A model generated the notes under the pieces. It did no database searches. It was not told the origin of the DNA and saw only the letters and a program-made list of their open reading frames with translations. From Ochrobactrum sp. BTU1 (GTDB lineage: Bacteria; Pseudomonadota; Alphaproteobacteria; Rhizobiales; Rhizobiaceae): a DNA stretch of 64,000 bases. Where the stretch lies: the NCBI GenBank assembly GCA_018798825.1, contig CP076356.1, positions 124,001 through 188,000 of the forward strand, given 5' to 3'. Positions 8,229 through 57,000 of this stretch are shown one piece after another (the first letter of the stretch is position 1; every line of letters starts with the position of its first letter). The translations under genes and the position numbers were made by a program.

Positions 8229-9149
8229 CTACAAAGTCACATCGCGTCTCGCGTCGACTGTTGCGAATATTTTTGCAGCCCACTCCGTGAATGCGCGCAA
8301 TCGCGGGTTGGGGAATCGATCTGCCGGGTAGATGAGGTGTAGCGGATGATTTTCAGGCTTCCAGTCAGGCAGCAGTTCGATCAGTTTTCCGCTCGCAATA
8401 TGCGGTCTGGCGAGGAACCCGAAGCTTTGGCCTAGCCCAAGGCCAGCAAGCAGCGCGTTCAAATGCGCAGTGCTCTCGTTCACCGAAATGCCACTGGACG
8501 TGGGGTGGTATTCAGTCCGCTCATCAGCGCGTTGAAAGCGCAGCGGAAACCTCTTTCCGGATGACGCCGAAAAATAACTGACGATCCGATGCGAATGGAT
8601 GTCGTCTGGCCTCATCGGAAGCTCCAGACCATTCAGATAGGCAGGGGACGCGCAAATGACGTAATCCAGCTCGCATAATTTCCGCGCTTTCATTGCCGAG
8701 TCGCTGAGAGCGCCGCCGCGAATGACGCAATCGATCCCTTCACTGATGAGGTCGGCAGGGCGATCACTTACGCCGAGCATAAGGTCAATATCAGGATACT
8801 GGTGTTGAAAATCGGAGAGCGTGGGTATCAGGATCTGGTTTGCGAGCACCGATCCAATGTCGACGCGCAGTTTGCCTTTCGGTGCGCTGCGTGAGCCAGC
8901 GACAGTACCGTCCATGTCATCGAGGTCAGCGAGAAGCTTTAGCGCTCGCTCGTGATAGGCGATACCTTCGGATGTCATTGTGACCGAGCGTGTGGTGCGT
9001 TCTACGAGCTTTGTCCCGAGATGTGCTTCAAGATCTTGCACAAGTTTACTCGCCGAGGATCGGGGCAGATTCATCATGTCAGCGGCTTTGGCGAACGATC
9101 CGGCTTCAGCAACCCGGACAAATGTTCGAATGGCGAGTATTTGATCCAA
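8229..9149 (-). CDS. LysR-family transcriptional regulator
   Basis: A 306-residue LysR protein: N-terminal winged HTH (FAKAADMMNLPRSSASKLVQDLEAHLG) followed by RTTRSVTMTSEG and a substrate-binding-like domain. It most resembles the large CrgA/DmlR-like group. It is co-oriented with, and upstream of, the SDR-MDR-ABM genes, so it is a plausible regulator of them, although divergent placement is more usual. Confidence 0.88.
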   Translation of the reverse strand: MDQILAIRTFVRVAEAGSFAKAADMMNLPRSSASKLVQDLEAHLGTKLVERTTRSVTMTSEGIAYHERALKLLADLDDMDGTVAGSRSAPKGKLRVDIGSVLANQILIPTLSDFQHQYPDIDLMLGVSDRPADLISEGIDCVIRGGALSDSAMKARKLCELDYVICASPAYLNGLELPMRPDDIHSHRIVSYFSASSGKRFPLRFQRADERTEYHPTSSGISVNESTAHLNALLAGLGLGQSFGFLARPHIASGKLIELLPDWKPENHPLHLIYPADRFPNPRLRAFTEWAAKIFATVDARRDVTL

Positions 9150-9510: not shown

Positions 9511-9540
9511 TTGACAGAGTGTGGAAAAGCTTGTTGTATA
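9511..9540 (+). promoter_or_regulatory. Sigma70-type promoter of the amide operon
   Basis: TTGACA at 9511-9516 and TTGTAT at 9534-9539 are separated by 17 bases (an 18-base option gives TGTATA). This predicts a transcript start near 9546-9548, directly at the first leader hairpin, leaving a leader of only about 110 nt before the first start codon. Confidence 0.65.
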
Positions 9541-9545
9541 TTCGA

Positions 9546-9615
9546 ACGCGGGGGCAACGTAGCCCGTCAATGCGTAGAAAATAATCTAAGGGAACGTGGT
9601 GGCAATGAAGCCCGC
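9546..9615 (+). promoter_or_regulatory. Dual-hexaloop ANTAR antitermination leader
   Basis: Two short hairpins carry six-base loops with A at position 1 and G at position 4, the signature of ANTAR-protein RNA targets. The first has stem GGGC/GCCC (9552-9555, 9562-9565) and loop AACGTA, with possible outer pairing ACGC 9546-9549 to GCGT 9572-9575. The second has stem GGC/GCC (9601-9603, 9610-9612) and loop AATGAA; its stem is short. The 3' side of the second stem is also the start of the terminator at 9611, so the two structures exclude each other. An ANTAR protein is encoded two genes downstream. Confidence 0.78.
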
Positions 9616-9640
9616 AACACTTCGTGTTGGCGGGATTTTT
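9611..9640 (+). terminator. Leader terminator overlapping the second hexaloop
   Basis: CCCGCAACAC (9611-9620), loop TTC, then GTGTTGGCGGG (9624-9634) form a ten-pair stem with one bulged G, followed by ATTTTT. This is a textbook intrinsic terminator 18 bases before the amiC-like start. Because it shares bases with the second hexaloop stem, it is the conditional switch of the operon. Confidence 0.8.
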
Positions 9641-9657
9641 GTCGTTTGTGAGGTGGA

Positions 9658-10818
9658 ATGGGTGAGCTAACCTGCAAGATCGGCATATTGATTTCAACAA
9701 CTGGCGCTTATGCGGCAGTTGGACGTGCCATCTTGAACGGAACCCTGCTGGCATGTGCGCAGATAAATGCCGACGAAGAGCTGAAGGTCGCTCTCGAGCC
9801 GGTGCATTACAACCCCGGTGGTGATCTGGAAGAGTATTCAGTGGCGACCAGAAAGATGATCGACGCCGGTTATCGTCATGTCGTGGGGTGCTATACGTCA
9901 TCCAGCCGCAAGGAAGTTATTCCACTTTTTGAAAAGTATGATGCACAGCTATGGCATCCATCCCATTATGAAGGTTTTGAAAGCTCTCCAAACGTAATCT
10001 ATACGGGTGCCTCGCCAAACCATCATATGTCACCATTGATGGACTACCTCCTAACCCGATATGGTCGCAAAGCCTTTTGTGTTGGTTCCAACTATATTTG
10101 GGGTTGGGAAAGCATCCGTGTCCTGCGCGAATATATTCATGTGCGCAAGGGACGTGTTCTGGCCGAGCGTTATCTCGGCGTTGGTGAAACGGACTTTCAG
10201 AAGATCATCGAAACCATCTTTGAAGAGCAGCCGGATTTTATATTCAATGCTTTGATTGGTGACTCTTCATACGCCTTTTTCGAGCAGTTTCGACAGGCAT
10301 GTGAAGCGCGCGGTATCAATCAGACCGAACGCTTCCCAATAGCGAGCTGCAATCTTTCTGAACCCGATCTTACTGAAATAATGCCGGAGTGCAGAAATGG
10401 ACATATCAGCTCGTCCGTCTATTTCTCGACCCTGACCAATCCCGAAAACCGTTTTTTTGTGGCCCAATATAACCAGGCTTTTCCTGACGGTCCCCCTCCA
10501 GCGGCAGAAGGTGAAGCCGCCTATATCGCTACTATCATGCTCGGAATGGCTATTGCCGCGGCCAATTCCACCGATCCCATGCTGGTTAGAAACGCTGTCG
10601 CCGGAATGCAGTTAAAGGCACCGCAGGGATTGGTGACAATTGACCCGGAAACACACCATGCATATCTGACGCCGCGGATCGGACTATCGACCCGGGACGC
10701 CGAATTTGAAGTGCTGATCGAGGCGCCAGCGCCTGTGCGACCCGACCCCTATCTCGTTTCTGCAGATAGCCTAGCTATAACCTCAATTGGTCAGGCTAGT
10801 TTGAGGGTTGTACAATGA
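9658..10818 (+). CDS. amiC: AmiC-like amide sensor (periplasmic-binding fold)
   Basis: A 386-residue Leu/Ile/Val-binding-type protein with no signal peptide: it starts MGELTCKIGILISTTGAYAA. It is therefore cytoplasmic, like Pseudomonas AmiC, the ligand-controlled negative partner of AmiR. The fold is kept across the length (VVGCYTSSSRKEVIPLFEKYDAQLWHP, AEGEAAYIATIMLG). It overlaps the ANTAR gene by an ATGA junction, as amiC and amiR would. The expected role is to bind short amides, or urea, and release the antiterminator. Ligand specificity is inferred from the transporter and amidase downstream. The likely ribosome site GAGG is close to the ATG. Confidence 0.85.
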   Translation: MGELTCKIGILISTTGAYAAVGRAILNGTLLACAQINADEELKVALEPVHYNPGGDLEEYSVATRKMIDAGYRHVVGCYTSSSRKEVIPLFEKYDAQLWHPSHYEGFESSPNVIYTGASPNHHMSPLMDYLLTRYGRKAFCVGSNYIWGWESIRVLREYIHVRKGRVLAERYLGVGETDFQKIIETIFEEQPDFIFNALIGDSSYAFFEQFRQACEARGINQTERFPIASCNLSEPDLTEIMPECRNGHISSSVYFSTLTNPENRFFVAQYNQAFPDGPPPAAEGEAAYIATIMLGMAIAAANSTDPMLVRNAVAGMQLKAPQGLVTIDPETHHAYLTPRIGLSTRDAEFEVLIEAPAPVRPDPYLVSADSLAITSIGQASLRVVQ

Positions 10819-11465
10819 GCGGCCGCTTCACACAGAATTTCAGGAACCGCCGCGGGATCATTGTTTCGCGTGATTTCAGAGCAATTGGCGCTTTGGATTC
10901 GACTCTCCCAAAACTAGGCTTGAGTGCATCCTATGTACCGCTTAAAGCCGATAGGGCGGAACTGTTGGAATCTGAGCTCAATGCCGAGCGTGACGTGTTG
11001 TTTGTGGATGGTGATCTCGATAATCCACTTTCTCTTCCAGTCAGTCCGGTCAGTGGCTTGGCCTGTGTTCCGATTGTCGGCCTGGTTGGTGTCGAAGCCC
11101 CTAGCCGCTTGAAAGGACTTGTGCAGTCAGGCGCGACGGCCTTCCTGCGCAAACCCGTTTATGGATCAATTGTCTATTCAGCTATTGTCCTTGGCATCAA
11201 CTCCTACCAGCAGCGACAACAGATGGAGACCACAATTGCTCTCCATGAAATGCGTCGCCAGCAGCGCCGCAGTCTGATCAAGGCAATCGTCGAGATTATG
11301 CGTCGTCACAATGTCTGTGATGATGAGGCTTACAACCTTCTTCGCAGGGAAAGCATGAAATCACGAATGAATGTTGAAACATACGCAGAATACTTCATCA
11401 GCGAAGTGATGAAGGTGGACGACCGCGAAACAGAAACCACTCAAAGGTCAACGATCGCGAACTAA
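10815..11465 (+). CDS. amiR: AmiR-like ANTAR antitermination regulator
   Basis: A 216-residue protein with an N-terminal degenerate receiver-like domain (about 12-125), a helical linker rich in Gln/Arg (131-152) and a C-terminal ANTAR domain (about 145-200; AIVEIMRRHNVCDDEAYNLLRRESM). This is the AmiR plan. ANTAR proteins bind paired hexaloops in nascent RNA and prevent terminator formation, and exactly such a leader precedes this operon at 9546-9640. Its ATG overlaps the stop of the amiC-like gene by four bases, which helps fix the sensor/regulator ratio. It would positively control its own operon. Confidence 0.87.
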   Translation: MSGRFTQNFRNRRGIIVSRDFRAIGALDSTLPKLGLSASYVPLKADRAELLESELNAERDVLFVDGDLDNPLSLPVSPVSGLACVPIVGLVGVEAPSRLKGLVQSGATAFLRKPVYGSIVYSAIVLGINSYQQRQQMETTIALHEMRRQQRRSLIKAIVEIMRRHNVCDDEAYNLLRRESMKSRMNVETYAEYFISEVMKVDDRETETTQRSTIAN

Positions 11466-11484
11466 CCTCCGAGGAGAATAAAAA

Positions 11485-12720
11485 ATGTCTATTATTAAAA
11501 AAGCCGCAGCTTTTGCGGTAACGGGAACGCTTGCACTTTTTTCTGGTGTAGCACTTGCTCAGGAGCCGATTAAGATCGGTGTTCTGGAAGATCAATCTGG
11601 CGAATTTGTCGTGCCTGTTATCGGCAAGGTTCATGCAATTCAGCTTGCGACCGAAGAAATCAATGCCAAAGGTGGTATTGCCGGGCGCCCGATTGAGCTA
11701 GTCGTCTATGATACCCAGTCGGACAATACGCGCTTTCAGGAATTTACGCGACGCGCTCTGCAACGCGATAAGGTTGATGTGATTTTCGCCGGCTTTTCAT
11801 CGGCTTCCCGCGAAGCCTATCGACCGATCGTGCGACAGTTTGACGGCTTTGCCTTCTATAACAATCAGTATGAAGGCGGTGTCTGTGATGCCAATATGGT
11901 GATTACGGGTGCTGTGCCGGAACAGCAGTTCTCGACCCTCATTCCATGGATGATGGAAACTTATGGGAAGAAGGTTTACACCATCGCCGCGGATTACAAT
12001 TTCGGCCAGATTTCTGCTGAATGGGTACGCAATATCGTCAAGGAAAATGGTGGCGAGATGGTTGGAGAGGAATTCATTCCGCTCGGTGTTTCGCAATTCT
12101 CGCAGACCATTCAGAATATCCAAACGGCCAAGCCCGATGTGGTTGTAACTCTGCTGGTTGGAACCGCGCAGGCCTCCTATTACGAACAGGCTGCATCTGC
12201 CAATCTGAAATTGCCTATGGCTTCATCGGTAAATGTCGGTCAGGGTTATGAGCACAAGCGCTTTACACCGCCCAGCCTCGCCAATATGCATGTGACGACA
12301 AACTATATCGAGGAAGTTGATACGCCTGCGAGCAAGGACTTTAAAGAACGCTTCCACGCCAAGTTTCCGAATGAACCCTATATCAATCAGGAAGCTGCCA
12401 ACTCCTATATTGCAGTCAACCTCTATAAGCAGATGGTTGAGCGTGCCGGTGGTTCAACCAAGCGGGATGATTTGCGCAAGATAATCGCCGAAGGTGATGT
12501 TTGCTTTGATGGCCCGTCGGGAAAAACCTGCCTTGATCCCAAGAGCCAGCATATGTCGCATACCATCTATCTGGCAAAAGTTGGCGATGACCATAGCGTT
12601 TCTTTCCCGAAAGTCTGGAACGATGTGAAGCCTTACTGGCTGGGTGATGCGGGTTGCGACCTGACGAGAAGTAATCCGGGAGAACAGTACACACCATCTA
12701 ATCCACCTTCGAAGCAGTAA
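11485..12720 (+). CDS. Urea/short-chain amide ABC transporter, substrate-binding protein
   Basis: A 411-residue UrtA/FmdD-type periplasmic binding protein with a Sec signal peptide (about residues 1-25, ending ALA before QEPIKIGV). The segments GVLEDQSG, GGIAGRPIELVVYDTQSDN, FYNNQYEGGVCD and GQGYEHKRF resemble the urea/amide group. CysCys near the C-terminus (VCFDGPSGKTCLD) may form a disulfide. It follows a GAGGAG ribosome site 20 bp after the ANTAR gene. It should deliver amides or urea to the two permeases and two ATPases that follow. Confidence 0.88.
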   Translation: MSIIKKAAAFAVTGTLALFSGVALAQEPIKIGVLEDQSGEFVVPVIGKVHAIQLATEEINAKGGIAGRPIELVVYDTQSDNTRFQEFTRRALQRDKVDVIFAGFSSASREAYRPIVRQFDGFAFYNNQYEGGVCDANMVITGAVPEQQFSTLIPWMMETYGKKVYTIAADYNFGQISAEWVRNIVKENGGEMVGEEFIPLGVSQFSQTIQNIQTAKPDVVVTLLVGTAQASYYEQAASANLKLPMASSVNVGQGYEHKRFTPPSLANMHVTTNYIEEVDTPASKDFKERFHAKFPNEPYINQEAANSYIAVNLYKQMVERAGGSTKRDDLRKIIAEGDVCFDGPSGKTCLDPKSQHMSHTIYLAKVGDDHSVSFPKVWNDVKPYWLGDAGCDLTRSNPGEQYTPSNPPSKQ

Positions 12721-12729
12721 GGGTCTGAT

Positions 12730-12754
12730 CCGGCACGCACCTGTTGCGTGCCGG
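12730..12754 (+). promoter_or_regulatory. Intercistronic hairpin after the binding-protein gene
   Basis: CCGGCACGCA, loop CCTGT, TGCGTGCCGG: a perfect ten-pair stem just after the binding-protein stop, without a T run. Such hairpins commonly stabilise the upstream mRNA, so that binding protein is made in excess of membrane subunits. Role inferred. Confidence 0.6.
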
Positions 12755-12785
12755 AAGACCAGACGTCTCCCGATTAAGGATTATT

Positions 12786-13661
12786 ATGATGGAGCTATTG
12801 GGTTCTCTTTTCGCTGCCTTTTATCAGTTTGGCGATGCGTTTGCGTTTCTCGTTCTCTCGGCGTGCGGACTGGCAATTATTTTCGGCATGATGGGGGTCA
12901 TCAATCTCGCGCATGGAGAGTTCATCATGTGCGGTGCCTATGTCACCGTAATGACGACAAAAGCCGGTTTGCCGTTGCCATTGGCGATAATCGCGGGTGC
13001 TTTGGTGGCAGGTATCATCGGTATGCTGCTCGAGCGGCTTGTGATCCGCCATCTCTACGGACGCCCGCTTGATACAATCGTGGCGACTTGGGGCATTAGT
13101 TTGATTGCGACACAGGGAACGCTCATTCTTCTGGGTTCAACGATGCAGGGCATCGGCACGCCATTGGGCTCATTCACTCTGGGTGCTCTTTCCTTCTCAG
13201 TTTACCGCATGGTCCTGATGCTGGCTGCGCTGGCTATCCTCGCAGGTCTCTACCTTGTCTTTAACAAGACTCGCTTCGGCATCCTCGCTCGCGCGACCAT
13301 TCAGGTCCCGGACATGGCCAGAACGCTTGGTGTGAACACGAACTACATTTATGCGCTGACGTTTGGTCTGGGCGCCGGTCTGGCAGGGCTCGCCGGCGGG
13401 CTTTATGCTCCCACCATGACCCTGGTGCCGACAATGGGATCAAGCTTCATCGTGGAGTCATTCGTAACTGTTGTTGTCGGTGGCGCTGACGTCTTTTTGG
13501 GCACTGCACCAGCCGCAGCCATCCTCGCGGTCGTTAAGGCAAGTCTCACTTCCATGTATGGCCAGCTGTTCGGACAGATTGGGCTGCTCGTTGCTGTGAT
13601 CATCGTCATTCGGGTGCTGCCAAATGGCCTTTCAGGGCTTTTCATAAAAGGAAAAGGTTAA
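12786..13661 (+). CDS. Amide/urea ABC transporter permease (UrtB/LivH type)
   Basis: A 291-residue LivH-like inner-membrane permease with about eight hydrophobic segments. Family motifs include AIIFGMMGVINLAHGEFIMCGAY near the N-terminus and the cytoplasmic loop RATIQVPDMARTLGVNTNYIYALTFGLGAGLAGLAGGLYAP, which contacts the ATPase. ATG 12786 (followed by a second ATG) is chosen because TAAGGA lies just upstream; a longer frame from 12744 lacks this. Its stop overlaps the next permease start. Confidence 0.88.
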   Translation: MMELLGSLFAAFYQFGDAFAFLVLSACGLAIIFGMMGVINLAHGEFIMCGAYVTVMTTKAGLPLPLAIIAGALVAGIIGMLLERLVIRHLYGRPLDTIVATWGISLIATQGTLILLGSTMQGIGTPLGSFTLGALSFSVYRMVLMLAALAILAGLYLVFNKTRFGILARATIQVPDMARTLGVNTNYIYALTFGLGAGLAGLAGGLYAPTMTLVPTMGSSFIVESFVTVVVGGADVFLGTAPAAAILAVVKASLTSMYGQLFGQIGLLVAVIIVIRVLPNGLSGLFIKGKG

Positions 13662-14722
13662 TGGCACTCAAGCTATTCGGGCATCTTGAAGGCCCGCAAA
13701 CCAAGGGGAAAGGCCCAGTTTTCTGGAGTGGCTTTTTAGCCGTTGTCCTGCTCGCAATCATTTATCCAATGTTTTCAGACGGATACACAATTGGAAACAA
13801 CGTCTACTTTCTGATCTGGACATTCATGGCCATGGGGCTCAGTCTCATCTGGGGTTATGGCGGTGCATTGTCGTTTGGCCAAACAGCATTCTTCGGCGTT
13901 GCGGGTTACGCTTATGGCGTTCTGACGATCAATATCGGTGATGCTTTCGGATTCACCCTTATCGCGCTAGTGCTGGCAATTCTCCTTGCCGGTCTGACTG
14001 CTGCAATCATTGGCTATTTTTTGTTCTATGGGCGGATAACGGGTGTGTTTCTGGGCATCGTCACCCTTTCGGTTACGTTGGTTCTGGAACGCTTCATGGC
14101 GCAGACCGCCGGCCCGGAATGGGCGATTGGAAAAGCCCGCCTTAACGGTTTCAACGGCATGAGTGGTATGCCGCCAATCACTATTCCTTGGTTTGGTGGC
14201 GATATTGCTCTCTATCCCGATATTGGACTCTATTATGTCGTTCTTGGCCTCGTCTTGGTCGTCTATCTGGGATTGCGGCTTGTGTTGAACTCGCCATTTG
14301 GCAATGTTCTCGTTGCCATCCGCGAAAACCCACAAAGAGCCGAGATGCTGGGCTATGATGTTCGCCTCTATCAGTGGGGGGGCTTTATCATAGGTTCAAT
14401 GCTGGCCGGTCTTTCGGGCGTTCTTTATACGGCCTGGGGTCAATATATTACGCCATCAAGCATGAGCATTACGGCTGCAGCACTACCGATTGTCTGGGTT
14501 GCAGTTGGTGGGCGCAGCGACATCACAGCGACGCTTATTGGAACAATTCTGGTGCTTGCAGGATTTCAGGCGCTTACAATTTATGGCGCACAATACGCAC
14601 TGATTGTTATGGGTGCTCTGCTTGTGTTCACCGTGCTTATTGCGCCGCAAGGTATTGTACTGGGGCTAGCTAATCTGGTCGGGCGTGTTCTGATCTTCAA
14701 ACAGAAGAGGTCAGCATCATGA
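13661..14722 (+). CDS. Amide/urea ABC transporter permease (UrtC/LivM type)
   Basis: A 353-residue LivM-like permease, about ten membrane segments, with MGLSLIWGYGGALSFGQTAFFGVAGYAYG and the coupling-loop region VAIRENPQRAEMLGYDVRLYQWGGFIIGSMLAGLSGVLY. It starts in the stop codon of the preceding permease (TAATG) and ends overlapping the first ATPase by ATGA, so the transporter genes are tightly coupled. It pairs with the UrtB-type subunit to form the membrane channel. Confidence 0.9.
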   Translation: MALKLFGHLEGPQTKGKGPVFWSGFLAVVLLAIIYPMFSDGYTIGNNVYFLIWTFMAMGLSLIWGYGGALSFGQTAFFGVAGYAYGVLTINIGDAFGFTLIALVLAILLAGLTAAIIGYFLFYGRITGVFLGIVTLSVTLVLERFMAQTAGPEWAIGKARLNGFNGMSGMPPITIPWFGGDIALYPDIGLYYVVLGLVLVVYLGLRLVLNSPFGNVLVAIRENPQRAEMLGYDVRLYQWGGFIIGSMLAGLSGVLYTAWGQYITPSSMSITAAALPIVWVAVGGRSDITATLIGTILVLAGFQALTIYGAQYALIVMGALLVFTVLIAPQGIVLGLANLVGRVLIFKQKRSAS

Positions 14723-15435
14723 ATATCCTTGAAACACGCAACCTGCATAAGCGCTTTGGTGGTCTGCATGTAACAAATGATGTCAACCTTCAACTCAGGA
14801 AGGGGGAGATTCATTGTTTGATTGGACCCAACGGGGCAGGTAAAAGTACCCTCTTCGCGCTCATACTGGGTAAATATCTGCCAAGCGAAGGTGATGTTCT
14901 TTATAAAGGTGAAATAATTACGCAATTGAAATCGTTTGATCGGATCGACCGCGGTATTAGCGTGAAGTTTCAGGTGCCGGGTATTTTTAAGGAGCTGAGT
15001 GTTTACCAGAACCTCGAAATAGCCGTTCAACGAAAGCATCGCGGTACAGAGCTCAAACGCGAAATCGAGCGTCTTTTAGGTTTCCTGAAGCTTGAGGATT
15101 CCACCACAAAACTTGCTGGTAATCTCAGCCATGGCCAGAAGCAATGGTTGGAGATCGGTATGGCTATCAGTCTTGAACCAGAACTGCTGCTTCTCGATGA
15201 GCCCACTGCAGGCATGACCCCGGACGAAACATTTGCAACCGGAGAAATGGTTCAACAATTGAATGCGCAGGGAGTGACTGTTCTGGCCGTTGAACATGAC
15301 ATGGCATTCGTTCGGCAAATCGCACAACAGGTTACAGTCCTGCATTTTGGTAAAATCTTCGCGCAAGGCTCGATCGACGACATCGTTAAGGATGACCGGG
15401 TCGCTGCAATCTATCTGGGGCAGGCCGATGCATAA
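14719..15435 (+). CDS. Amide/urea ABC transporter ATPase (UrtD/LivG type)
   Basis: A 238-residue ABC ATPase with Walker A GPNGAGKST, signature LSHGQKQWLEIGMAI, Walker B LLLLDEPTAGMTPDE and the switch histidine in VEHDM. Signature LSHGQ and the TAGMTPDE continuation are typical of UrtD and distinguish it from LivG proper. It overlaps the permease before and the second ATPase after, which begins 8 bases before this stop. Cytoplasmic, membrane-associated. Confidence 0.9.
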   Translation: MNILETRNLHKRFGGLHVTNDVNLQLRKGEIHCLIGPNGAGKSTLFALILGKYLPSEGDVLYKGEIITQLKSFDRIDRGISVKFQVPGIFKELSVYQNLEIAVQRKHRGTELKREIERLLGFLKLEDSTTKLAGNLSHGQKQWLEIGMAISLEPELLLLDEPTAGMTPDETFATGEMVQQLNAQGVTVLAVEHDMAFVRQIAQQVTVLHFGKIFAQGSIDDIVKDDRVAAIYLGQADA

Positions 15436-16141
15436 GGAAATTCTACTTCAAACACGCGGTTTGTGGGCTGGATATGGTGGTAAGCCCGTGCTGCAGGGTG
15501 TCGATATCGATGTGCACAAGGGAGAAATCGTAGCAGTCATCGGTCGTAACGGCGTCGGTAAGTCGACACTTATGAAGTCGCTTATCGGGCTTTTGCCGGC
15601 TGACCGGGGATCAATAGGTTTCAACGCACAGGATGTCACGCATCTACCTCCGCACAAGCGGGCACGCCAAGGTATCGGTTATGTTCCGCAGGGTCGGGAT
15701 GTATTCCCCCGTATGACGGTTGAAGAAAATCTGGCAGTTGGCGAATCTATCACTCCAGGTGCCAGTAAAGAGCTTTATGACGATATTTATTCCCGGTTTC
15801 CAATCCTCGCAGAAAGACGGCATCAACGCGCGGGAACAATGTCGGGCGGCCAGCAACAACAATTGGCAATTGGTCGTGTTTTGATAGGACGTCCATCTCT
15901 TATTCTTCTCGACGAGCCGTCGGAAGGGATCCAGCCAAACATCGTGATGGATATTGCGAAACTATCGGTGGAACTCAACCAGAAAACTGGAGTGTCTATC
16001 ATTCTCGTTGAGCAAAATATCGATATGATCCGCGCCATGGCCCAGCGCTGCTATGTTATGGACAAGGGAAGTATCGTTGCAACTCTCACAGCCGAGATGT
16101 TGGAAGATCGCGACACGGTGCGCAGATATCTCGCCGTTTGA
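15428..16141 (+). CDS. Amide/urea ABC transporter ATPase (UrtE/LivF type)
   Basis: A 237-residue ATPase with Walker A GRNGVGKST, signature MSGGQQQQLAIGRVL, Walker B LILLDEPSEGIQPNIV and VEQN as the H-loop region, all in UrtE/LivF style. The start at 15428 gives the family-typical N-terminus and overlaps the preceding gene; a longer upstream frame is only read-through of that gene. With UrtD-type ATPase it would power uptake. It is followed by a 110-bp gap and the amidase. Confidence 0.9.
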   Translation: MHKEILLQTRGLWAGYGGKPVLQGVDIDVHKGEIVAVIGRNGVGKSTLMKSLIGLLPADRGSIGFNAQDVTHLPPHKRARQGIGYVPQGRDVFPRMTVEENLAVGESITPGASKELYDDIYSRFPILAERRHQRAGTMSGGQQQQLAIGRVLIGRPSLILLDEPSEGIQPNIVMDIAKLSVELNQKTGVSIILVEQNIDMIRAMAQRCYVMDKGSIVATLTAEMLEDRDTVRRYLAV

Positions 16142-16251
16142 CGATGGCAATCTCGTAGTTACACGTTTTGAACAGTCCCAATATTCGTTTGTTCCGGGTC
16201 AGGAGCAGCTCGGAAACCTATACCATCTCAAAATGATTAAAGGAGACTTTT

Positions 16252-17250
16252 ATGTCCTGGTTTGATGAATCGATCATGGTCCGCAAAGGCGTTGCAAAGG
16301 GTATCGCTGGAAAAAGCCATCACATCAGTGAGGAAGTGCAGGGCAAGTATCAATATGTCTATGGTTCCTATGTTGAGCCGGTTCTACATGTAGAGCCAGG
16401 CTCGGTGATTTCCGCCGAGACGCATGACGCATTTGAAGGGAAAATCCGCAAGGAAACTGACAAGCCATCAGAAATTTTGAATTTTCCATTCCTCAATCCA
16501 CAAAATGGGCCAATCTATGTCGAGGGTGCAGAGAAAGGCGACACGCTGGCGGTATATATCAAGGAAATCCGTCCGCGAGGTGAGCAACCGTCGGGGACCA
16601 CCGTTATCATGCCTGAATTTGGCGGTCTCGTGCCGACAGCAGATACAGCGATGCTGAATCCAACATTGCCGGAAGTGGTCAAGAAGTTGCACATCGATGC
16701 TGAAAAAGGCGTCAAGTGGAACGATCGTATCACACTGCCATACGAACCATTCATTGGTACAATCGGGACTGCACCTGAAATTGAAGCTATCAGTGCTCTG
16801 GTCCCGGATTATTATGGTGGCAATATGGATTTGCCTGATGTTGCGCCGGGCGCAATCATTTACCTGCCCGTGCAAACCAAGGGTGCCTACCTGTTTCTTG
16901 GTGACTGTCACGCTGCGCAAGGTGATGGCGAACTTTGCGGTGTGGCCGTTGAACATCCAACAGTGACGACCATTCAGGTCGATTTGATAAAAAACTGGAC
17001 TATCCGTACTCCTCGTCTGGAGAATGATAAATTCTATATGACAGTTGGTTCTTCCCGCCCGATGGAAGACGCGGCTCGACAGGCCTACAGGGAGTTGATC
17101 CGCTGGATGGCAACCGATTTCGGTTTCGATGAAATCGACGCCTATATGCTTTTAACGCAGGCGGGACGTGTCCGCCTTGGAAATATGGTAGATCCAAAAT
17201 ACACACTTGGAGCTTCCATTTTGAAGTCGATATCCGGCATCGCAAAATAG
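16252..17250 (+). CDS. fmdA: Formamidase/acetamidase family amidohydrolase
   Basis: A 332-residue FmdA_AmdA enzyme, which hydrolyses formamide or acetamide to ammonia and the acid. Conserved parts include the acidic/His segments SAETHDAFEGKI, GDTLAVYI and GDCHAAQGDGELCGVAVE, the last a metal-site region of the family. AAGGAGA lies five bases before ATG 16252. As last gene of the ANTAR-leader operon it fits the system well: sensor and antiterminator, importer, then the enzyme that releases nitrogen. Which amide is preferred cannot be judged. No signal peptide, so cytosolic. Confidence 0.88.
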   Translation: MSWFDESIMVRKGVAKGIAGKSHHISEEVQGKYQYVYGSYVEPVLHVEPGSVISAETHDAFEGKIRKETDKPSEILNFPFLNPQNGPIYVEGAEKGDTLAVYIKEIRPRGEQPSGTTVIMPEFGGLVPTADTAMLNPTLPEVVKKLHIDAEKGVKWNDRITLPYEPFIGTIGTAPEIEAISALVPDYYGGNMDLPDVAPGAIIYLPVQTKGAYLFLGDCHAAQGDGELCGVAVEHPTVTTIQVDLIKNWTIRTPRLENDKFYMTVGSSRPMEDAARQAYRELIRWMATDFGFDEIDAYMLLTQAGRVRLGNMVDPKYTLGASILKSISGIAK

Positions 17251-17260
17251 CATCACGCTA

Positions 17261-17288
17261 TGGTGGCGCGCAATATAAAGCGCCACCA
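17261..17288 (+). terminator. Hairpin after the amidase gene
   Basis: TGGTGGCGC (17261-17269) and GCGCCACCA (17280-17288) form a perfect nine-pair stem with a ten-base loop, eleven bases after the fmdA stop. The following bases (AGATTTCC) are only weakly T-rich, so this is a probable operon end or mRNA-stabilising hairpin. Confidence 0.55.
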
Positions 17289-17344
17289 AGATTTCCACGT
17301 ATATGCAAAGTTTTGGTAATCTCATCGGGGTTCTTCTAAACAGT

Positions 17345-18640
17345 ATGACATTCAAGTTTGAGCCGCGTGTTTTTCTGGAGTCGTTGTTCGATGCGGCGGT
17401 TGCGGCTGCTGATCCCGAACTGGTTATCCGCGCCAATCTGCCTGCCAAGCCCAAGGGCCGGACGATTGTGATTGGTGCGGGCAAAGGCTCGGCACAGATG
17501 GCAGCCGCTTTCGAACGCGCATGGGCAGAGCGGCATGAGGGCGAGGACGCACCAATCGAAGGCATCGTCGTCACGCGCTATGGCTATGGCGCGCCTTGCA
17601 AGACCATCGAGATCATTGAGGCATCGCACCCGGTGCCTGATGATGCCGGGCTTGCGGCCTCAAAACGGCTGTTCGATGCAGTTTCTAACCTCACCGAAGA
17701 TGATCTTGTTGTGGCGCTTATTTCTGGCGGAGGTTCTGCTTTGCTGCCATCGCCGCCTGAAGGTCTGACGCTTGCCGACGAGATTGCGGTCAACAAAGCT
17801 TTGCTGGCTTCTGGTGCGCCGATCTCGGCCATGAATGCGGTGCGAAAACACCTGTCGACCATTAAAGGCGGGAGGCTGGCAGCGCACGCACATCCGGCAA
17901 AAGTCTTCTCGCTGGTGGTTTCCGATATTCCCGGCGACAATCCTGCCTTTGTCGCTTCAGGCCCAACCGTGCCTGATGCAACATCTCGCGATGATGCGCT
18001 CAAAATCATCGAACGTTACAAGCTTGAACTGCCCGATGCCGTGCTCACGCATATCAAAAGCGAGAAGGCTCATGCACCAAAGCCCGATGATAAAATCTTT
18101 GCCGATAACGAAGTGCGGGTGATTGCGTCCGCTGCTGTTTCGCTGGAAGCAGCCGTAAAGGAAGCCGAGCGTCATGGGGTCGAGGCGGTGATCCTGTCCG
18201 ATTCAATGGAAGGGGAAGCACGCGAAGTGGCGCATGTTCACGCAGCAATCGCGCGTGAAGTGGCGGATCGTGATCGCCCGTTCAAAAAACCGGTTGTGCT
18301 GCTTTCTGGTGGTGAGACCACTGTGACCATCCGCGCCAAAGGCGGCAAGGGTGGCCGCAACAGCGAGTTTCTGCTGTCCTTTGCGCTTGATATTGATGGC
18401 TATGGGAATATTCACGCACTGGCTGCAGATACCGACGGCATCGATGGTTCGGAAGACAATGCCGGCGCGTTTGCAGATGGGACAACGGTTTCGCGGCTGC
18501 AAAAGGCTGGCGAAGATGGCGCTGCACGGCTAAACGCCAATGATGCGTGGAGCGCATTTGATACAATCGGTGATCTGTTCATGCCGGGGCCAACCGGTAC
18601 GAATGTGAACGATTTCAGGGTGGTCCTGATTGTGAAATGA
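17345..18640 (+). CDS. ttuD: Glycerate 2-kinase (MOFRL/TtuD family)
   Basis: A 431-residue kinase with both family domains. The N-terminal DUF4147 part has [33 protein letters not shown] and LISGGGSALLPSP. The C-terminal MOFRL part has LLSGGETTVTIRAKGGKGGRNSEFLLS, ADTDGIDGSEDNAGAF and TGTNVNDFRVVLI. It phosphorylates glycerate to 2-phosphoglycerate in glyoxylate and hydroxypyruvate assimilation. ATG 17345 gives the usual N-terminus, though its ribosome site is weak; 17303 is an in-frame alternative. A truncated paralogue lies at 22622. It follows the amidase but after a hairpin, so it may have its own promoter. Confidence 0.9.
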   Translation: MTFKFEPRVFLESLFDAAVAAADPELVIRANLPAKPKGRTIVIGAGKGSAQMAAAFERAWAERHEGEDAPIEGIVVTRYGYGAPCKTIEIIEASHPVPDDAGLAASKRLFDAVSNLTEDDLVVALISGGGSALLPSPPEGLTLADEIAVNKALLASGAPISAMNAVRKHLSTIKGGRLAAHAHPAKVFSLVVSDIPGDNPAFVASGPTVPDATSRDDALKIIERYKLELPDAVLTHIKSEKAHAPKPDDKIFADNEVRVIASAAVSLEAAVKEAERHGVEAVILSDSMEGEAREVAHVHAAIAREVADRDRPFKKPVVLLSGGETTVTIRAKGGKGGRNSEFLLSFALDIDGYGNIHALAADTDGIDGSEDNAGAFADGTTVSRLQKAGEDGAARLNANDAWSAFDTIGDLFMPGPTGTNVNDFRVVLIVK

Positions 18641-56345: not shown

Positions 56346-57000
56346 GGTCGCGAAGGCCTGGGTTCGAAATTGGCGATGGTCCACTACAGTCAGATGTTCT
56401 CGATGAAGTAGAAATAGATTGGCAATCAGGCCATGGACTGAGACGAACCGTTGCATTGCCGCGCTGACTGGAAACGCATCATCCGCCGCTCCCGTCCTCG
56501 CACGGGAAGATGTGAATTCTCTCCTCGATTGTGGAGGACTTTGCGCGAGCGATGTCGGACGCCGGGCATAATCTCCTGCTTGGCTCCAGTATCGTAGCAT
56601 ATTGGTCACCAGCACCCGTGTCCTGACGCCTTGGCTTTTCAGCAACTTTTCGGTCAGTCGGAGAGCAGCCTTGCTGTTTCTGCGCGATTGCATAAGCGCA
56701 TCAGGAACGTAGCTTTGGCGTCATCGAGGCGCCACAGCCAATATTTCTTCTCCTTGATCGGCACAATCATTTCATCCTTGTGCCATTTATCGGCAAAATT
56801 GCCTCGCGACTGCCGCTTGACCTCTTAGGCAAATTGACCACCGAACTTTATGGCCCGCTGGGAAACGGTTTGAAACGAGACGTCAGTGCCACGTTCGGCC
56901 AACAGATCACGAAGGCTGAGTGAAAATCGATAATAGAACTAGACCGCATGGGCGATGATCTCAGCTGAAAAGCGATGACGCTTGTAACGGTGGTCGAGGC
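56346..57000 (-). pseudogene. IS6-family transposase, near full length but broken
   Basis: On the minus strand: YKRHRFSAEIIAHAV, stop, FYYRFSLSLRDLLAERGTDVSFQTVSQRAIKFGGQFA, stop, then DKWHKDEMIVPIKEKKYWLWRLDDAKA, and, in another frame, QSRRNSKAALRLTEKLLKSQGVRTRVLVTNMLRYWSQAG and SVHGLIANLFLLHREHL. The DDE core order is kept but two stops and one frameshift disable it. Confidence 0.8.

What the first reader, a model, noticed from the sequence alone, without database searches (positions are those of the whole stretch)
9511..9657. Minimal ANTAR antitermination leader autoregulating an amiC-amiR amide operon
A promoter, two hexaloops with A1/G4 (AACGTA, AATGAA) and a terminator that shares bases with the second hairpin are packed into about 130 bp. 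Downstream are an AmiC-like sensor and an ANTAR protein. The mechanism is known from Pseudomonas ami and Enterococcus eut. What seems unusual is the layout: the leader lies before the regulators themselves and the transcript appears to begin at the first hexaloop. The second stem has only three firm pairs, so the call depends on loop sequence and context.
Basis: partly seen in the sequence, partly recalled or inferred. Interest (0 to 1): 0.8.

Follow-up and report, generated by a model that had tools for sequence, protein, structure and literature searches.

The report
ANTAR leader of an amide operon
A short RNA switch before an amide-sensing and uptake operon looks like a known type of protein-controlled terminator, is shared by many related bacteria, and holds its two recognition hairpins further apart than the best-studied example tolerates.

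Summary
Observation confirmed: P1 (loop AACGTA), P2 (AATGAA) and a terminator sharing two bases with P2 lie at 9546-9640, before an AmiC-like sensor, an ANTAR protein, an amide/urea-type ABC transporter and a formamidase-family enzyme. In 46 of 47 orthologous leaders (window included) I could assign P1, P2 and, in 44, an overlapping terminator. One P1 pair changed G-C to A-U at least 7 times on the protein tree; the terminator covaries; P2 never varies. A P2/terminator model built without the window's genus finds it at E 6.4e-8 (window) and 5.9e-6 (genome). ANTAR antitermination is the best reading; binding and readthrough are untested. The 'unusual layout' is ordinary: P. aeruginosa amiC and amiR also lie behind their own leader. 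In 24 of 46 an extra hairpin takes up the added length. A new variant of a known kind; moderate interest.

The parts
9511..9539 (+). Predicted promoter: -35 TTGACA 9511-9516, -10 TTGTAT 9534-9539, 17-nt spacer; predicted start near 9546
   Evidence: TTGAC lies 44-47 nt before the P1 loop in the 46 leaders. Start site inferred, not mapped.
9546..9575 (+). P1 outer stem: ACGC 9546-9549 with GCGT 9572-9575
   Evidence: Helix of 4 or more Watson-Crick pairs in 39 of 46 leaders, 9.3% of shuffles, 47% of arms swapped between leaders
9552..9565 (+). P1 inner hairpin GGGC-AACGTA-GCCC (loop 9556-9561, A1/G4)
   Evidence: model R1 top match in the window, E 0.0086, second in the genome, E 0.79
9566..9600 (+). 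P1-P2 linker, 35 nt (25 nt if the outer stem is formed)
9601..9612 (+). P2 antiterminator hairpin GGC-AATGAA-GCC (loop 9604-9609, A1/G4)
   Evidence: model R2 E 6.4e-8 in the window
9611..9640 (+). Intrinsic terminator 9611-9634 and U tract 9636-9640; shares C9611, C9612 with P2
   Evidence: (-14.0 kcal/mol)
9658..10818 (+). AmiC-like cytoplasmic sensor (no signal peptide seen by eye)
   Evidence: PF13433; P. aeruginosa AmiC structures 1QNL/1PEA E 1.3e-63
10815..11465 (+). AmiR-like ANTAR protein
   Evidence: PF03861 31.7 bits, cut-off 27.3; only ANTAR match in the genome
11485..12720 (+). Transporter substrate-binding protein (exported, urea/amide type)
   Evidence: TIGR03669 588.7 bits, cut-off 494.8
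12744..16141 (+). UrtB-, UrtC-, UrtD- and UrtE-like transporter genes (UrtE start probably 15428)
   Evidence: only UrtE passes its cut-off (286.3 against 285.8)
16252..17250 (+). Acetamidase/formamidase family enzyme (FmdA/AmdA)
   Evidence: PF03069 128.3 bits, cut-off 27; NF045496 formamidase 70.1 bits, below its cut-off of 500

Best explanation
An ANTAR-responsive transcription attenuator that controls its own regulators together with amide/urea-type uptake and hydrolysis. Transcription starts near 9546 at the foot of P1 (inferred). Without ligand, AmiC holds AmiR (inferred from P. aeruginosa and from homology) and RNA polymerase stops at 9636-9640. With a small amide (ligand inferred from FmdA and AmiC), freed AmiR binds P1 as it emerges and then P2; P2 alone is too weak to compete with the terminator (-2.8 against -14.0 kcal/mol), so bound protein must tip the balance (inferred). 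Readthrough makes AmiC, AmiR, transporter and FmdA: positive feedback from a leaky basal level. The hairpins are separated by about 20-25 unpaired nt, more than EutV leaders allow, which suggests that AmiR bridges or hands over between them with other geometry, perhaps as a larger oligomer (speculative).
For: Orthologous leaders share promoter, P1, P2 and terminator. P1 pair inner2 changed between G-C and A-U at least 7 times on the AmiC+AmiR tree. Terminator covariation score 0.375 against 0.169 shuffled, 69 both-side cells against 25.8. R2, built from 40 leaders of other genera, gives 42.6 bits, E 6.4e-8 in the window and 5.9e-6 in the genome, next 0.435. Of 5 named plasmid loci outside the models, R2 finds 4 at E<0.01 and R1 2 at E<0.05. 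Gene order AmiC-AmiR-transporter or FmdA. AmiC and ANTAR homology.
Against: P2 is invariant, so its pairing has no covariation support. 13 of 46 leaders lack an A1 or G4. R1 ranks this site only second in the genome, E 0.79, and has a chance-like hit at 56778-56812 (-), E 0.027. R1 misses 3 of 5 outside loci. L008 and L055 lack a terminator by my criterion. The linker exceeds the range in which EutV works. No binding, start-site or readthrough data.
Confidence: 0.85

Rival explanations
1. P1 is a 5'-end hairpin that stabilises the RNA or shapes initiation; AmiR acts through P2 alone (single-hexaloop binding).
For: P1 sits at the predicted 5' end with near-constant promoter spacing. PMC8934654 redefines the minimal ANTAR site as one hexaloop (abstract and section 26 part 2). 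R1 is weak outside the seed families.
Against: P1 loop A1 46/46, G4 41/46 goes beyond what a plain stability hairpin needs; in EutV leaders P1 is obligatory (PMC3369931 section 7).
Confidence: 0.2
2. An ordinary attenuator or terminator not controlled by AmiR, for example one answering to translation or another factor.
For: No direct binding evidence; strong intrinsic terminator.
Against: Hexaloops with A1/G4 and P2 overlapping the terminator in the only ANTAR operon of the genome. The nearest upstream gene (8229-9149) is on the other strand, so the terminator does not end it.
Confidence: 0.08
3. The partner of P2 is a hairpin inside the linker at ordinary spacing, and the upstream P1 is not used.
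For: In the window TAGA-AAATAA-TCTA lies about 12 nt before P2; 2 of 46 leaders have an A1/G4 hexaloop 2-25 nt before P2.
Against: Such a loop is absent in 44 of 46; the window's one lacks G4 and becomes a 7-nt loop in its closest relatives.
Confidence: 0.04

Closest known systems
Pseudomonas aeruginosa amiEBCRS operon, amiE leader, AmiC-AmiR
   Same: AmiC-like sensor next to an ANTAR protein in an amide operon behind one leader with P1, P2 and terminator (passages); AmiC homology E 1.3e-63
   Different: There the amidase comes first; here the regulators come first, then an ABC transporter and an FmdA-family enzyme. The amiE linker length was not obtained.
Enterococcus faecalis EutV/EutW eut leaders
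   Same: Dual hexaloop with A1/G4, P2 overlapping the terminator (PMC3369931 section 7)
   Different: Phosphorylated receiver rather than an AmiC partner; linker 5-12 nt, 14 nt drastically reduced induction, +20 nt abolished it in vitro; here 27-66 nt
NasS-NasT nas leaders (Paracoccus denitrificans nasA, Bradyrhizobium nosR)
   Same: AmiC-like sensor plus ANTAR protein, hairpin leader; in P. denitrificans hairpins HI and HII lie 137 and 91 bp before nasA, so a wide spacing may already exist there (passages)
   Different: Nitrate sensing; leader between regulators and structural genes in P. denitrificans
Actinobacterial ANTAR RNAs
   Same: Dual stem-loop, hexaloops
   Different: Curated there to linkers of 2-25 nt (passage of PMC8164766)

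Membership tests
ANTAR dual-hexaloop leader (definition in PMC3369931) | Two hairpins, at least three pairs each, variable linker | tested here: met
   P1 four inner pairs, P2 three; 46 of 46 assigned leaders
ANTAR dual-hexaloop leader | A at loop position 1 and G at position 4 in both loops | tested here: met
   Window AACGTA and AATGAA; all four letters in 33 of 46
ANTAR dual-hexaloop leader | P2 overlaps an intrinsic terminator | tested here: met
   Window C9611, C9612 shared; 44 of 46
ANTAR dual-hexaloop leader, narrower curation | Linker 2-25 nt (PMC8164766) or 5-12 nt (eut) | tested here: not met
   35 nt from the inner stem. Counted from the outer stem it is 25 nt, which just meets 2-25 but not 5-12
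ANTAR dual-hexaloop leader | Bound by the ANTAR protein and made readthrough-competent by it | not testable with these tools
   Needs biochemistry
AmiC-AmiR regulator pair | AmiC homologue | tested here: met
   1QNL/1PEA E 1.3e-63
AmiC-AmiR regulator pair | ANTAR domain over curated cut-off | tested here: met
   31.7 against 27.3 bits
AmiC-AmiR regulator pair | Similarity to the AmiR chain of 1QO0 | tested here: inconclusive
   The sequence search found 1S8N, 6WSH and 3M6M, not AmiR; fold search switched off
AmiC-AmiR regulator pair | Pseudo-receiver without phosphorylation site | tested here: inconclusive
   No conserved acidic pair, but D65, D67 and K113 invariant in 46

The most novel reading that the evidence does not exclude
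Alphaproteobacterial AmiR leaders keep P1 and P2 at a fixed unpaired distance of about 17-27 nt instead of a fixed chain length: where the linker grew to 52-66 nt, a hairpin beside P2 takes up the difference. AmiR would then read the two hexaloops with a geometry that EutV cannot, for instance as the larger oligomer reported for freed AmiR, or by hand-over near the polymerase.
Probability: 0.4. Interest if true: 0.6.

Novelty: new variant of a known kind. Interest (0 to 1): 0.45.

Why it matters
How an ANTAR protein uses two hexaloops is unsettled: one published model has a dimer on both loops, a later one has successive binding with a tight spacing limit. A natural set of leaders with spacings of 27-66 nt, and an extra hairpin that appears to compensate, lets the spacing rule be tested directly. 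It also gives a searchable leader family, with no match in Rfam for the window's member, for amide/urea-type uptake operons.

Tried and rejected
Whole-leader MAFFT alignments misaligned P2 between leaders, so P1 and P2/terminator were aligned apart. A first spacer measure that allowed G-U pairs picked other helices in 8 of 24 long linkers (spacers 8-36); with Watson-Crick pairs only all 24 gave 17-26; the plain minimum-energy folds left 2-24 unpaired, median 19. The outer P1 stem in one fixed register is paired in only 69.8% of cells, because the bulge length varies; the flexible count is 39 of 46. I looked for a P. aeruginosa-like ami operon by PF02293 (6 of 299 genomes matched): the listing gave no place beside a known ANTAR hit, so the amiE linker was not measured; I did not read those six loci. 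The R1 hits at G000:C1:1241044 and window 56778-56812 showed no P2/terminator on reading and are taken as chance. Rejected as unusual: leader before regulators.

Selection: 67 loci, less L001 (window), 16 without a neighbouring transporter or FmdA hit (L015, L017-L031), and L041, L043, L044 (taken as repeats of L032-L034 from identical hairpin lists) = 47. L016 was dropped because the script found neither TTGAC nor a fitting P1, though a 3-pair CTC-AATGGC-GAG hairpin is there. P1 and P2 were chosen by eye from candidates that had to be closed by GC/GC and to begin with A or G, so the two innermost pairs of P1, and two of the three of P2, are partly invariant by construction; an unselected A1/G4 scan shows the same hairpins in most leaders. 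The model seeds were 40: 46 less 5 of the window's genus and L040. Of the nine plasmid hits with 45% identity or more I fetched five (H1, H3, H5, H8, H9).

Full report
What is there. On the + strand of the window, TTGACA (9511-9516) and TTGTAT (9534-9539) are followed by hairpin P1 (GGGC-AACGTA-GCCC, 9552-9565), a 35-nt linker, hairpin P2 (GGC-AATGAA-GCC, 9601-9612) and a terminator (9611-9634, U tract 9636-9640) that shares C9611 and C9612 with P2; the AmiC-like gene starts at 9658. The composite occurs once on both strands of the window against 0.03-0.17 per shuffled window. Fold energy alone is unremarkable (z -0.78), the generic promoter/terminator scan misses it, and Rfam has no match at threshold.

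Genes. 9658-10818 matches Peripla_BP_5 and, best among solved structures, P. aeruginosa AmiC (E 1.3e-63); it has no signal peptide that I can see, whereas the paralogue at 11485 begins like an exported protein. 10815-11465 has an ANTAR domain over cut-off, the only one found in the genome. Downstream are a urea/amide-type ABC transporter (TIGR03669 over cut-off for the binding protein; UrtB, UrtC and UrtD models below cut-off, UrtE just above) and an FmdA/AmdA enzyme. The ligand is therefore a short amide or urea by inference.

Organism. The whole-genome search puts the window in a 5.88 Mb genome. The nearest named records are Brucella pituitosa, B. tritici and B. thiophenivorans (90-95% AmiR identity), that is, the Ochrobactrum-like part of the genus (that label is recalled). 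Of 35 genomes of the genus, 5 carry an AmiR of 90% identity or more, the own one included, and a sixth carries a 42% one.

Orthologous leaders. AmiR searches of 297 family, 35 genus, 397 order and 385 class genomes and of named genome contigs gave 67 loci, of which 47 were kept (selection in Tried and rejected). In 46 I assigned P1 and P2; the first was sought with GC/GC closure and A or G at loop position 1. TTGAC lies 44-47 nt before the P1 loop in all 46. Loop letters: P1 A1 46/46, G4 41/46; P2 A1 37/46, G4 42/46; all four 33/46. One P1 (L064) and one P2 (L046) have a 7-nt loop.

Pairing. P1 inner stem: 98.8% of cells paired; at one pair 32 G-C, 10 A-U, 1 G-U among 43 distinct rows, which on the AmiC+AmiR tree needs at least 7 changes between G-C and A-T. 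P1 outer stem: 39 of 46 have four or more Watson-Crick pairs, 9.3% of shuffled flanks, 47% of swapped arms, the last showing that shared sequence explains part. P2: 44 of 44 distinct rows GGC/GCC, hence no covariation. Terminator: 89.1% paired against 77.1% shuffled, covariation score 0.375 against 0.169; by another criterion 44 of 46 have a basal helix beginning inside the P2 3' arm and a T-rich tail, L008 and L055 not.

Independent test. Models built from 40 leaders outside the window's genus: R2 (P2 and terminator) hits 9598-9647 with 42.6 bits, E 6.4e-8 in the window (next 0.47) and 5.9e-6 in the genome (next 0.435). R1 (P1) is weaker: top in the window (9543-9578, E 0.0086; next 0.027) but second in the genome (E 0.79; top 0.08). 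Of 5 named plasmid loci outside the seed (Shinella, Methylobacterium, Skermanella, Paracoccus aminophilus, Palleronia), R2 finds 4 at E<0.01 and R1 finds 2 at E<0.05; the Shinella leader shows no clear U tract.

Energetics. P2 alone is worth -2.8 kcal/mol and the terminator -14.0 in the window (medians of the 46: -2.8 and -17.4); taking the P2 3' arm away leaves -8.1 in the window. So P2 should not win unaided, as the ANTAR model requires; this is calculation, not measurement.

Spacing. From the inner P1 stem the linker is 27-37 nt in 22 leaders (35 in the window) and 52-66 nt in 24. In each of the 24 a Watson-Crick helix of five or more pairs ends within 5 nt of P2 (11.7% of shuffles), CCAAC/GTTGG in 18 and other sequences in 6; leaving out that helix and the outer stem, 17-26 unpaired nt remain, median 20, against 17-27, median 25, in the short class. 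On a quick tree the long class is one change. With G-U pairs allowed 8 of the 24 gave other helices. In E. faecalis eut leaders the linker is 5-12 nt, and 3 or 14 nt drastically reduced induction (PMC3369931 section 7); +20 nt abolished antitermination in vitro (passages of PMC8934654). Curated actinobacterial RNAs have 2-25 nt (passage of PMC8164766). Measured from the outer stem, the window's 25 nt just fits the last range. P. denitrificans nasA has hairpins at 137 and 91 bp upstream (passage), so wide spacing may not be confined to this set.

Mechanism. The best-supported account is amide-relieved, AmiR-dependent antitermination with positive feedback on amiC and amiR. Shown by comparison: conserved parts, P1 and terminator covariation, P2/terminator overlap, linkage to the sole ANTAR gene. 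Inferred: start site, ligand, binding, readthrough, the role of the spacing. PMC3795266 notes that freed AmiR forms larger oligomers (passage), which could bridge a longer gap; PMC8934654 proposes successive binding of one hexaloop after the other (section 26 part 2).

Known or new. P. aeruginosa amiC and amiR also lie behind the amiE leader (passages), and 17 of 39 other AmiC-like/ANTAR loci have an R2 match with E<1 directly before the AmiC-like gene, with 4 more behind the ANTAR gene, so regulator-first leaders are not special. Nine text searches of open-licence papers listed none that I recognised as describing this operon's leader; lists were capped, subscription papers and supplements were not seen, and PMC3369931 mentions hits before urea transporters that may include some of these. 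I file it as a new variant of a known kind.

Noticed in passing
L023, L024, L026-L029, L031, L068, L069, L071, L072, L074, L076, L078-L080, L083 (before the AmiC-like gene); L084, L088-L090 (behind the ANTAR gene): Other AmiC-like/ANTAR loci (NasS-NasT-like, my label) match R2 at E<1 (21 of 39). Several of their loops lack G4 (ATTTGG, AAGAAT, AGTTTC) and I saw no clear P1.
   Followed up: partly
AmiR residues 65, 67, 113 (window 10815-11465): The receiver-like domain keeps D65, D67 and K113 in 46 of 46 AmiR relatives although the acidic pair of true receivers is not conserved.
   Followed up: partly
9534-9539 and orthologous promoters: In many orthologues the -10 place at exactly 17 nt from TTGACA reads GAGCCT or CAGCCT instead of an AT-rich hexamer.
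   Followed up: no
window 9546-18640; genus genomes: The close orthologue is patchy: 5 of 35 genomes of the genus; gain or loss was not examined.
   Followed up: no
L008 and L091 (Shinella) leaders: P2 is kept while the terminator or its U tract looks degraded.
   Followed up: no
L060-L063, L065, L066: In these loci the FmdA gene follows amiR directly, with no transporter hit between them.
   Followed up: no
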